A model generated the notes under the pieces. That model was not told the origin of the DNA, made no database searches, and worked only from the letters and a program-made list of their open reading frames with translations. A DNA stretch of 47,284 nt from the NCBI GenBank assembly GCA_902767915.1, contig CACXJE010000005.1:24613-71896 (forward strand). The letters run 5' to 3'. Origin of the DNA: Oscillospiraceae bacterium. GTDB lineage: Bacteria > Bacillota > Clostridia > Oscillospirales > Oscillospiraceae. A program made the translations under genes and the position numbers. Below are positions 6,993-41,450 of the stretch, one piece after another. How positions within the stretch are numbered: position 1 is the stretch's first letter; every line of letters starts with the position of its first letter.

Positions 6993-9980
6993 TCAGCGGA
7001 GGATCGGACGCAGACGCAGCCGGAACCGGAGCTGTCCTGCGGGAAGCATGTGTTCCGGGGCGGGTCTGGCACCCCAGCTGTCGTCACCCGCCACGCCCAT
7101 CTGCTTGAGGCAGGCGCGAACCACGGTGGCGGTGACCGGCGGCAGTTCATAGACATGGTCCGCCGCTTCCAGTTCATGGGAAGTCCAGGGCAGCACAGAC
7201 AGCTCAAAGGGATCGCCCTCCAGCCGGAGACCCAGGCCGGCTTCGTCGGTGATCTCCGCCCAATGGACGCCGAAGTGGTTGCCGCATTCCTGGGGCTTCA
7301 GATAGCGGGACAGGGAGTCCGCTGCGGTGGTCTCCCAGACCCCGAGACGAACGCCGGCATGCCGGTCGCAATGGCTCTCCTCCGGGCCCAGGCCGTACCA
7401 TTTCAGCCGGTTACAGCTCGGGTTCAGCCGGAAGGACAGACCGAATTCAGGCAAGGAAGCGCCGACGGAGGAGGCGTCCATGGACAGCTCCAGCTCCAGC
7501 AGGCCGCCTGCATAAATCCGATACAGCAGCTCGCAGGCGGAGGCGGGTTTTGTGCCCAGGTGATAGCGGAACAGGACCTCCAGATGGTCCGGGAAGGGGG
7601 TGATGGAGACCGGCTCTCCCTTTTGATACAGGTCCGCCAGCTTCCACTGTCCCAGCTCTGCGGGGAGATTCGCGCCCCGGTCATTGTCCGTGGGCGCCCG
7701 CCAGAAGCTGGGCCGGACAGGGGCCTTCAACAGCTCCTTTCCCTGCAGCGCACAGGACACCAGCGCACATTGGATGCCGGAAAACAGATATTCTCCCCCG
7801 TCAAAGGGGATGCCGGCATTCATGCCGCCCCGGACAAAGGCCGGGAAGCCCTCCGGCTTCCGGTCCGGCAGGCTGCCGCACTCGCAGAAGGCAAAAGCCA
7901 CCTCGTGTCCGGCCTCGGCCCAGTCGGTTTTCTCACGCAGGGTGAAGCAGGCCGTCACCGCGTAAACCGTTTCCGGATCCTTGGGCCAGAAGGGCAGGAC
8001 GTAGGACTTCTCCCCTTCCGGCGGCACGTCGGTTTCCAGCTCCGCCTGGGCGGCCAGCACGCCCTCCCGCAGCATCCGCACCGTGCAGCGGTAGTGGGAG
8101 GAATTTGTGAACAGGTTCCGGTTCCGGATATGGAGAATCCCGTCTTCCAGGCGCAGACGCAGGCCCTGATAGAGGGCCTTCACCTCCGCCATCTTCGGCG
8201 AAGGAGAACGGTCGTCGGCGTAGACGATGCCGTCGCCGCTGAAATTGCCGTCATGGGGCCGGTCGTCAAAGTCGCCGCCATAGCCCAGGACCCGGCGTCC
8301 GTCCGGCAGAGTCTGCCAAAGGGCCTGGTCAATATAGTCCCAGATAAAGCCGCCCTGGTAGGCGGGAACCTCCTCGGACAGGGCGATATAGCGCTCCATA
8401 TTGCCGAAGGAGTTGCCCATGGCGTGACCGTACTCGCAGGAGATGGCAGGCCGGGAGCTGTCCTTCTCCAGCTCGGTCCGGATCTGCTCCGCAGGCCAGT
8501 ACATATTACTCATGAGGTCGGAGGTCTCCCGATAGGCGGGATCATGGATGACGCTCTCATAGTGGACCGGTCGGGAATCCACCTTCCGGAAATACCGGGA
8601 GGCCGCCAGCAGATTGTCGCCGGAATAGGATTCGTTGCCGCAGGACCAGATCAGAACGGAGGGATGGTTTTTGTCCCGCTCATACATAGCCTCCGCCCGG
8701 GCAAGCACCGCCTCGTGATAGTCCTCCCGGCTGCCCGGCACGTGCTGCTCCGGCGGGATCACGCCCAGCTGGGTCATCAGCCAGGAGCCGTGGGATTCCA
8801 CGTTCATCTCGTCCAGCACATATAGGCCGTATTTGTCGCACAGCCGGTAGAAGAAGGAGCGGTTGGGATAGTGGGAGGTGCGGACCGCGTTGATATTGTT
8901 CCGCTTCATGGTGCGCAGATCCAGCTCGGTCTCTTCTTCCGTGACGGCTCTGCCGTGCTCCGCGGAAAATTCGTGCCGGTTCACGCCGCGCAGCAGCAGA
9001 CGCCTGCCGTTGAGCAGCATCAGGCCGTCCTTGATTTCGATGCGGCGGAAGCCCACTTTCTCCCGTATGCTTTCGGTGAGGCGGCCTTCCGTGTCCCGGA
9101 CTTCCAGGCAGAGTTCATACAGGAAGGGATCCTCCGCGCTCCACAGCCGGGGATGATTCATCGGAATGGTACAAACGCCGGACGTCTCGGCGGACAAGCA
9201 AAGCTTGTCCCTACAGGAGGAATCGGCGGGATCGAACAGGTACGCCCGGATCGTTGCCGGGGCAGTCATCTTCACCTGCAGCCGGAGACAGGCAGTTTCA
9301 AAATCTTCGGAAAGCTCTGTGGAGATCCGCAGGTCCTCCACGTGGGTCATCGGCACTGCCACCAAAGACACCGGACGGAATAAGCCGCCGAAACGGAAGA
9401 AATCCTGATCCTCCATCCAGGAGGCGGTGGTAAACTGAAAAACCCGCACAGCAAGCAGATTCTCCCCATCTCGCAGCAGGTTGGTGACATCAAACTCTGT
9501 GGTGGTATAGCCATCCTCAGAGTAGCCCACATACGCTCCGTTGAGCCAGACCGCAAGGCCGCTTTCATAGCCTTCAAAGCGGAGAATCGCCCGGCGGCCC
9601 CGGAAGATTTCAGCAGGGGTAAACCGGCGCAGGTAGCTGCCCACAGGGTTATAGCGCTGCGGGGCCTGGCCGGGGGCCACGGACTCATGGCCGTCCCAGG
9701 GGTATTGGACGTTGTTATAGGCGGGGTGGCCGTAGCCCTGGAGCTGCCAATGGGAAGGAACCGGGATCCGGTCCCAGCCGGAGCTGTCATAATCCTCGGC
9801 AAAGAAATCCGCCGGGGCCTCCGCCGGACAAGCGGCATAGGAAAACTGCCAGCTGCCGTTCAGACTCTGAACAGGGTCCTCTCCCTTCGGGAGCTGCCAC
9901 AGATGGTCGGAATGATCCGGCAGTCGATTTTCCCGGAAAAAATCCGGGCGCAGCGTTTTTTCATAAGAAAAGGTGTTCAT
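6993..9980 (-). CDS. lacZ: Beta-galactosidase, glycoside hydrolase family 2
   Basis: This 995-residue cytoplasmic enzyme (no signal peptide) hydrolyses terminal beta-galactosides such as lactose. Domains in order: GH2 sugar-binding jelly roll (about 40-215), immunoglobulin-like domain (about 218-315), TIM barrel (about 315-610), and C-terminal small-chain domains including Bgal_small_N (about 730-995). The barrel carries GVNRHEF (332-338), acid/base E450 in WSCGNE and nucleophile E516 in [11 protein letters not shown]. The start at 9980 has GAGAGG upstream. Residues 255-263 in the Ig-like domain are encoded by a REP-like palindrome, so this copy has an in-frame insertion. No sugar transporter or regulator gene is adjacent. 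Confidence 0.95.
9192..9216 (-). repeat. REP-like GTAG palindrome, copy A (inside lacZ)
   Basis: On the plus strand: GGACAAGC (9192-9199), loop AAA, GCTTGTCC (9203-9210), then CTACAG (9211-9216). On the minus strand it reads CTGTAG followed directly by the hairpin, the GTAG-plus-palindrome layout of REP elements. It is in frame in lacZ and encodes residues 255-263 (SCRDKLCLS). Confidence 0.8.
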
Positions 9981-10005
9981 TGGATACCTCTCTGTCTTTG
10001 GAAAG

Positions 10006-40810: not shown

Positions 40811-41450
40811 AGTGATTCATTGTATGTGAGTCGAGCTTCGTTTCTTCCAGCAATGAGAACAGGGCTTCCCGCGTGATCACACAGTTCAGCGCGGTCAGCA
40901 GGGCGTTCGCGCTGAGATTTTCCGGGAAACCCAGTTTTTTTTGGAGGGACTTCCGCCGTGCTTTGCTGTCGGCACCGCCCGACAGTCCCAGTTCAAACAG
41001 GTCGGTTTTGGTGATCTGATTGGCTGTTGCAGTTCGCGGGCGGCCAATGGCCGCCCCTACGGTGAGGTCGTCCAGGAAGGTCGCGCCGGCGTTTTTTAAG
41101 GCGGTGAGCAGGGTGGCGGGGTCCATGCCCTCGACGCCTAACTTGCCCTCCTTGCCCGGGGCGGCCTTGCGCTTTTCCTTGCCGGGAATGTCGGGGATAT
41201 AGGCGTGCTTCACAAGCTCCGGCGGAATGGCGCCCTTCAGATAATTCCGGATCACCAGGCCCCCGCCGTCGCTGTCCGTCAGGATGATGAGGCCCCGCTG
41301 TTCCGCAACACGACGAAGCAGGGACAGGGTATCGGGATTTCTGAAGATTCCGAAGCCGTTGGTGACAAAGATGGGAGCGTCGATGATCTGAGAAAGGGTG
41401 TTTTGGTCGTAGCGGCCCTCCACCACCAGGGCTTCCTTGATCTTAAGCAT
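40803..41450 (-). CDS. rnmV: Ribonuclease M5 with DUF4093-like C-terminus
   Basis: This 215-residue protein processes 5S rRNA precursors. The TOPRIM domain (about 1-90) has the catalytic EGRYD (E11, D15) and TDSDGGG (D59, D61). The C-terminal region (about 145-205, ITKTDLFELGLSGG and following) is the DUF4093-like part. The linker between them holds residues 131-138 (VGAAIGRP), encoded by REP-like copy D, so this gene has an in-frame insertion at a tolerant site. AGGGGAGG lies six bases upstream of ATG. It overlaps holA by eight bases at its start and the ABC-F gene by eight at its end. Confidence 0.9.
   Translation of the reverse strand: MLKIKEALVVEGRYDQNTLSQIIDAPIFVTNGFGIFRNPDTLSLLRRVAEQRGLIILTDSDGGGLVIRNYLKGAIPPELVKHAYIPDIPGKEKRKAAPGKEGKLGVEGMDPATLLTALKNAGATFLDDLTVGAAIGRPRTATANQITKTDLFELGLSGGADSKARRKSLQKKLGFPENLSANALLTALNCVITREALFSLLEETKLDSHTMNHYD
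41038..41062 (-). repeat. REP-like GTAG palindrome, copy D (inside rnmV)
   Basis: Plus strand: GGGCGGCC (41038-41045), loop AAT, GGCCGCCC (41049-41056), then CTACGG (41057-41062). On the minus strand it reads CCGTAG plus the hairpin. It is read in frame as GTA-GGG-GCG-GCC, giving VGAA and then IGRP, so no stop codon arises. Confidence 0.83.

What the first reader, a model, noticed from the sequence alone, without database searches (positions are those of the whole stretch)
9192..41062. REP-like family: GTAG joined to an 8-3-8 palindrome, four copies with covarying stems
Copies at 9192-9216, 11782-11806, 13129-13153 and 41038-41062 share one architecture on the minus strand: GTAG, 8-base arm, 3-base loop, 8-base arm. 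Two use GGACAAGC-type arms and two use GGGCGGCC arms, yet pairing is preserved except for one G-T end pair. GTAG next to an imperfect palindrome is the known signature of REP elements moved by RAYT (TnpA-REP) transposases. Covarying stems with a fixed GTAG suggest the hairpin shape is what is selected. All four have the same orientation, and all four lie in transcribed genes on that strand.
Basis: partly seen in the sequence, partly recalled or inferred. Interest (0 to 1): 0.72.

Follow-up and report, generated by a model that had tools for sequence, protein, structure and literature searches.

The report
RAYT-linked REP hairpins, some inside genes
The four hairpins are copies of a known kind of short mobile DNA (REP elements) that is scattered through this gut bacterium's genome beside the transposase genes thought to spread it, and some copies lie inside genes, where they are read as extra protein residues or as stop codons.

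Summary
In detail: all four GTAG + 8-3-8 copies are at the stated places; random windows of like composition give 0.06 on average. The genome yields 145 model matches of this type, several stem families and four RAYT-like genes. In the genus, 26 of 26 RAYT genes tested have a GTAG hairpin within 250 nt (background 9-21%), and related RAYTs carry related stems (Mantel r 0.55, p 0.0001). The architecture equals a 23-nt Stenotrophomonas REP that TnpA-REP cleaves in vitro.

Corrections: the four copies are two stem families; only two lie wholly inside genes (lacZ, rnmV), read in frame; in the other two TAG is the upstream gene's stop codon. Both habits are already described for GTAG REPs, so this is a new member of a known kind.

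Less ordinary: a loop of RNase M5 carries REP-coded residues in 11 of 21 congeners, and a RAYT gene between rpmA and obgE carries 2, 1 or 6 in-frame GTAG REP units just after its HUH motif in three species.

The parts
9192..9214 (-). GTAG REP unit, GGACAAGC stem, loop TTT; inside lacZ in frame, coding CRDKLCLSA
11782..11804 (-). GTAG REP unit, GGACAAGC-type stem with one end mismatch; its TAG (11803-11801) is the stop codon of the isochorismatase-like gene
13129..13151 (-). GTAG REP unit, GGGCGGCC stem; its TAG (13150-13148) is the stop codon of an 88-codon ORF
41038..41060 (-). GTAG REP unit, GGGCGGCC stem; inside rnmV in frame, coding VGAAIGRP (residues 131-138)
6993..9980 (-). lacZ-like beta-galactosidase gene (GH2) that hosts the 9192 copy; start as set by my gene caller
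11801..12325 (-). isochorismatase-like hydrolase gene ending in the 11782 copy
13148..13414 (-). 88-codon ORF with no Pfam match, ending in the 13129 copy
40803..41450 (-). rnmV (RNase M5-like: DUF4093 match, Toprim match just under its cut-off); a low-confidence loop within the DUF4093 match hosts the 41038 copy

Best explanation
The four copies are single GTAG REP units (23 nt: GTAG guide, 8-bp stem, 3-nt loop) of two stem families in a genome that holds several REP/RAYT sets. Inferred from studied TnpA-REP enzymes: a RAYT (single-strand Y1/HUH transposase) recognises GTAG plus its stem as folded ssDNA, cuts near it at a short dinucleotide and rejoins it elsewhere, so that units spread as singles or pairs. 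Shown here on a sample: most units lie between genes and a minority inside them. GTAG can be read three ways. GTA-G (Val-Gly) and xGT-AGx keep a gene open, and such copies are found as short in-frame stretches. The third frame is TAG, found at gene ends as the stop codon. A separate cellular role of these four copies is not needed to explain them.
For: 145 model matches in the genome at E <= 0.01 (150 of 1537 candidates scored; at least two pairs are the two strands of one palindrome). 55 and 51 hits with up to 3 mismatches for the two stem patterns against reversed-pattern controls of 2 and 0 (some hits are both strands of one palindrome). RAYT-like matches at four places in the genome; 17 of 23 genus genomes have RAYT matches, 55 rows in all. 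Of 26 loci inspected, 25 have a GTAG hairpin within 350 nt and 21 have them on both sides. In 26 genes of a second pass 26 have one within 250 nt; for random 450-nt intervals the same finder gives 9-21% with at least one and 0.3-1.8% with both sides. Own C7 RAYT stands among GTAG-CGGCGGCC units, which share the 7-bp core of the window's GGGCGGCC stem; a congener's RAYT (L127) is flanked by the window's GGACAAGC stem. RAYT distance follows stem distance, Mantel r 0.551, p 0.0001. 13 of 13 aligned RAYTs match NCBIfam REP_Tyr_transpos at E <= 0.001 and keep HUH and W-Q-x4-(D/E)-x3-R as described for GTAG contacts. The model of one matches IS608 TnpA and 4er8, a RAYT on a REP hairpin. 22 of 117 sample units are inside genes although 88.7% is coding; 6 of 117 supply a stop against 18 of 1410 other GTAGs, p 0.008.
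Against: No transposition or strain-level empty site was seen. No RAYT found in this 78%-complete genome is flanked by the GGACAAGC stem. The two printed RAYT scores against REP_Tyr_transpos (63.6 and 56.8 bits) are below its cut-off of 80, and the IS200-type TnpA also scores 34.8 on it. H146, one of the GTAG-contact positions, is kept in 10 of 13. The stop-codon enrichment is modest and rests on six units, two of them the window's. The Mantel test does not separate shared ancestry from specificity. 3 of 11 lacZ homologues have other residues where the REP lies.
Confidence: 0.93

Rival explanations
1. The hairpins are kept mainly because they work in RNA: 3'-terminal or inter-cistronic stem-loops that stop transcription or protect mRNA, with RAYTs only their historical source.
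For: Two of four sit exactly at gene ends on the transcribed strand; 6 of 117 sample units supply the stop codon.
Against: 19 of the 88 units placed between two genes lie between divergent genes, about the share of divergent spacer (9,426 of 38,538 bases); no T-run follows the window copies; stems differ between families while GTAG is shared.
Confidence: 0.15
2. The in-gene copies are ordinary coding sequence that happens to look like a REP.
For: In lacZ the net length gain over the closest homologues is only about 4 residues and 3 of 11 family homologues have other residues there; genus paralogues align without a gap at that place.
Against: The same 23-mers, or ones with a changed loop, recur across the genome; in rnmV the stretch from GVEG to GL(S/T) is 41-47 residues in 48 other named loci and 52-96 in the congeners with hairpins.
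Confidence: 0.04
3. The rnmV loop received one ancestral REP pair, whose stems were later replaced by conversion with other genomic REPs, rather than many independent insertions.
For: In several species the insert starts at the same place and frame (V-G) and several keep an inverted partner at the other end.
Against: The inserts of G002 and one G006 copy start with a different repeat, and G009 has two units head to tail; no tree was built.
Confidence: 0.45

Closest known systems
Stenotrophomonas maltophilia REPtron Sm (group 3 TnpA-REP), PMC8266576
   Same: REP of 23 nt with an 8-bp perfect palindrome, a 3-nt loop and a GTAG motif, the architecture of the finding; TnpA-REP cleaves it at CT (passages read)
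   Different: Another bacterial group; its stem was not compared; here no biochemistry
GTAG REP superfamily of Di Nocera et al. 2013 (24 families), PMC3733652
   Same: GTAG terminus, stem subfamilies with compensated changes, dimers, REPtrons, TAG stop codons given to flanking ORFs, intragenic units, tRNA pseudouridine synthase B genes among the hosts (abstract, sections 5, 15, 16 and passages)
   Different: 'clostridi' does not occur in its text; the families here were not compared with its Figure 1
Rickettsia palindromic elements (RPE), as described in PMC3733652
   Same: Palindromic units in frame inside protein genes
   Different: CGTC tag; no dedicated transposase known according to that paper
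REPINs of Pseudomonas fluorescens (PMC3116915, seen as search listing; details recalled)
   Same: Paired REPs spread in trans by a RAYT
   Different: Here singles, pairs and tandem arrays of several stem families coexist

Membership tests
GTAG REP elements | GTAG directly 5' of a short palindrome | tested here: met
GTAG REP elements | High copy number, dispersed | tested here: met
   145 model matches over many contigs
GTAG REP elements | Mainly extragenic | tested here: met
   22 of 117 sample units inside genes against 88.7% coding; of the window's four, two are intragenic
GTAG REP elements | Occur also as inverted pairs | tested here: met
   seen, not counted; the four window copies are single
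GTAG REP elements | RAYT gene flanked by units of the same stem | tested here: inconclusive
   own C7 RAYT for the GGCGGCC core; GGACAAGC seen only beside congeners' RAYTs
GTAG REP elements | Bound and cut by the cognate TnpA-REP as ssDNA | not testable with these tools
   needs purified protein
RAYT / TnpA-REP | HUH motif and Y1 fold | tested here: met
   N80-H81-x-H83 kept in 13 of 13; fold of one member
RAYT / TnpA-REP | Curated family score over cut-off | tested here: not met
   NF047646: 63.6 and 56.8 bits against 80; 13 of 13 match at E <= 0.001, best E 2.1e-20. I call them RAYT-like by hairpin flanks, fold and motif, not by this cut-off
RAYT / TnpA-REP | GTAG-contact residues W, Q, E/D, H/R, R | tested here: met
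   W139, Q140, R149 in 13 of 13, D/E145 in 13 of 13, H146 in 10 of 13 (Y in two, Q in one); residues as described in PMC6006769

The most novel reading that the evidence does not exclude
In-frame REPs in this genus are not only tolerated debris. The RAYT gene between rpmA and obgE holds GTAG REP units at one fixed place, between the HUH strand and the next helix, as 2, 1 and 6 units in three species, all in frame. The transposase would thus carry its own recognition hairpin in its gene, so that it binds or cuts its own coding DNA and limits itself, with unit number as the setting. The rnmV loop would be a second place where REP sequence has become protein.
Probability: 0.12. Interest if true: 0.68.

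Novelty: new member of a known kind. Interest (0 to 1): 0.42.

Why it matters
It puts a dense, multi-family GTAG REP/RAYT set in uncultured gut/rumen Clostridia, and offers a genus in which the same protein loop (RNase M5) and the same transposase gene carry different REP loads in different species. That is a natural test bed for how mobile hairpins become protein sequence and whether a RAYT is limited by its own element.

Tried and rejected
The lacZ insertion was first inconclusive with genus paralogues and clearer with family homologues (gap of eight residues in 8 of 11, other residues in 3), but the net gain is only about 4 residues, so an exact insertion is an alignment statement. The CT-cleavage idea was checked through the dinucleotide 5' of GTAG: CC 46, AT 18, CT 14 of 117 units, against 14%, 5%, 5% at other GTAGs; CT is enriched about twofold but CC and AT are as well, so no cleavage site can be named. 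The IS200-type TnpA on C9 was considered as the mover and set aside: it scores as IS200 (152.2 bits, cut-off 55), and the rows for its stretch (L030) show no unit of the recurrent stems. The covariation count is weak evidence, since its 24 rows were picked as hairpins. Rows dropped: one search used 116 of 119 elements (the 11782 copy was among the dropped) and counted two units in a spurious 16-codon gene (one in frame, one as stop); one search used 117 (stems TGTGATTCCC and TGGCCGCGG left out) and genes of 60 codons or more. In one search my pattern failed to read 28 of 80 named loci; 6 of the 48 short ones gave a lax hairpin call, none beginning with GTAG; the 48 may include congeners. In one search the finder allows loops to 15 bases; background was measured only for the similar finder. 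I had first placed the rnmV copy in an interdomain linker; the Pfam DUF4093 match (residues 103-198) covers it, so I now call it a loop.

Literature: PMC3733652 abstract, outline, sections 5, 15, 16 and passages; PMC8266576 and PMC6006769 passages; PMC2817692 a term search with no occurrences; all others only as search listings. I saw no paper on REPs inside a RAYT gene or in an RNase M5 loop in those seven searches, which cover only open PMC text and were not aimed at every wording; the supplementary list of intragenic REPs of PMC3733652 was not read.

Full report
Observation. The four copies exist as described. On the minus strand each is GTAG followed by an 8-base arm, 3-base loop and 8-base arm; three are perfect, and the 11782 copy has an A-C mismatch at its first pair on that strand. 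A scan for GTAG + 8-3-8 with at most one mismatch finds these four in the window, against 0.06 on average and never more than 1 in 1000 Markov copies. In the window plus 20 chosen stretches (369,041 bases), GTAG leads all tetranucleotides before short hairpins by count, 119 of 1523.

Genome context. The window is part of a 2.2 Mb, 99-contig, 78%-complete genome. Four named records (L173-L176) have the same RNase M5 stretch as congeners G009, G005, G004 and G019; they are MAGs titled Oscillospiraceae bacterium (three: one from goat omasum, two Tb.RUG isolates) and uncultured Clostridia bacterium; that RUG means rumen is recalled. The two stem patterns of the finding give 55 and 51 matches with up to three mismatches against 2 and 0 for the reversed-pattern controls (some are both strands of one palindrome). 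A covariance model from 24 distinct units finds 145 matches at E <= 0.01; only 150 of 1537 candidates were scored, and at least two pairs are the two strands of one palindrome, so about 143 places by my reading. Other stems recur in the sample: GGACGAGC, GGGCCGATG with a 4-base loop, CGGCGGCC, GCGGGCA, GGCGCAC and more. Across 250 genomes of the family the GGRCRAGC-type unit occurs in 12 (9 of 106 genera), from 1 to 51 matches, with no control match.

The transposases. Besides one IS200-type TnpA, the genome has RAYT-like matches at four places: C50, C10, C7 and C82. 17 of 23 genus genomes have matches, 55 rows in all, of which I looked at those with a locus in hand. Of 26 loci, 25 have a GTAG hairpin within 350 nt and 21 have them on both sides; the one without is a fragment with an internal stop (L130), and the one-sided ones are L116, L118, L125 and L128. 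In one search (26 genes: L130 left out, C82 added) 26 of 26 had one within 250 nt. For random 450-nt intervals the same finder gives at least one flank in 908 of 5000 (own chosen stretches and window), 438 of 5000 (window alone) and 1073 of 5000 (loci of relatives fetched for other genes), and both flanks in 56, 16 and 91. Protein distance followed stem distance (Mantel r 0.551, p 0.0001; shared ancestry is part of this). The C7 RAYT of this genome stands among GTAG-CGGCGGCC units, the 7-bp core of the window's GGGCGGCC family; the GGACAAGC stem flanks a RAYT in congener G001 (L127) but none seen in this incomplete genome. The 13 aligned RAYTs keep the HUH motif and W-Q-x4-(D/E)-x3-R (H146 in 10 of 13), the spacing of residues described for GTAG contact in E. 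coli TnpA-REP (passages of PMC6006769). A model of the C82 protein (mean pLDDT 79) matches IS608 and ISDra2 TnpA and 4er8, the RAYT bound to a REP hairpin. All 13 match REP_Tyr_transpos at E <= 0.001; the two scores printed are below its cut-off, and the IS200 TnpA also scores 34.8 bits on it.

Where the copies sit. In the sample 22 of 117 units lie inside predicted genes although 88.7% of the sequence is coding. On the GTAG strand seven in-gene units use frame GTA-G and eight use xGT-AGx (one more in a spurious 16-codon gene left out), and seven lie antisense; the third sense frame is TAG. Six of 117 units supply a gene's stop codon against 18 of 1410 other GTAGs (hypergeometric p 0.008). In the window the TAG of the 11782 copy ends the isochorismatase-like gene. 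Of ten congener loci printed, two (L053, L055) end with CTGTAG followed by a hairpin unit (L053 with the same GGACAAGC stem); L052 and L058 end at the same codon with TAA and no such unit; L051 ends there with TAA before another hairpin-like stretch; four end two to four residues later (L062 with a TAG that no unit follows), and one runs on into the next frame. The TAG of the 13129 copy ends an 88-codon ORF. The 9192 copy codes CRDKLCLSA in lacZ; 8 of 11 family homologues (the closest 57-59% identical) show an eight-residue gap there, with a net difference of about four to the closest; three have other residues. Di Nocera et al. 2013 already report stop codons from GTAG REPs and intragenic units.

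RNase M5. The 41038 copy codes VGAAIGRP, residues 131-138 of rnmV, in a stretch predicted with pLDDT below 50 (128-142) inside the Pfam DUF4093 match (103-198). Of 21 genus genomes with an rnmV match, 11 have a GTAG hairpin there (single, paired, or with a longer filler), one (G025) has a lengthened stretch without a clear hairpin, and nine are short. Of 80 named loci my pattern read 52: four are the congeners above with REPs, 48 have 41-47 residues from GVEG to GL(S/T) and no GTAG hairpin, and 28 were not read. Whether this is one old insertion with stem turnover or several insertions is open.

A RAYT with REPs inside. The C82 RAYT lies between rpmA and obgE (named by eye from their sequences). 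Its frame carries two inverted GTAG units right after the HUH strand, one intact and of the kind that also stands upstream, one degraded. Its counterpart in G023 carries one and in G024 six 33-bp tandem units, all in frame. The model places them in a low-confidence loop (residues 94-106) between strand 81-89 and helix 113-131. Of 18 genus genomes with an obgE match, three have the full gene there, three (G021, G001, G011) have short C-terminal matches that look like remnants, ten show none, and two loci were not read.

Verdict. The finding is a genuine GTAG REP population with RAYT-like genes: supported, and known in kind. The 8-3-8 architecture equals the 23-nt Stenotrophomonas REP that TnpA-REP cuts at CT (PMC8266576 passages). 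That the units move by the same chemistry here is inference. What I did not see described in my searches of open PMC text is the recurrent RNase M5 loop and REPs inside a RAYT gene; these are the parts worth following.

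Noticed in passing
L139 276-812 (G000:C82), L140 1208-1717 (G023:C33), L141 (G024:C7): RAYT gene between rpmA and obgE with 2, 1 and 6 in-frame inverted GTAG REP units just after the HUH motif; short remnant-like matches in three other congeners.
   Followed up: partly
L065-L086 (rnmV of the genus): A loop of RNase M5 carries REP-coded residues in 11 of 21 congeners, up to about 50 extra residues.
   Followed up: partly
window about 13047-13100, minus strand; also inside rnmV of G002 and G006 (L085, L084): A second repeat (CTCCCCTG..CAGGGGAGGGGGACCGGCC..GGCCGGTGGAGGGGT) that also appears read in frame in rnmV; a different family without GTAG at its end.
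   Followed up: no
L046 8358-9284: truB-like gene holds two REP units (one sense, one antisense) and ends on the TAG of a third; PMC3733652 names tRNA pseudouridine synthase B genes as REP/RPE hosts in other bacteria.
   Followed up: no
L029 6780-7034 and 6119-6616 (G000:C50): A RemA-like gene ends on the TAG of a long-loop REP beside a RAYT; the RAYT sits between it and a gyrB-like gene (gyrB by eye).
   Followed up: partly
window 26713-26829: Nine-base tandem repeat in ORF 26587-29493.
   Followed up: no
L030 4671-5132 (G000:C9): IS200-type TnpA gene.
   Followed up: no
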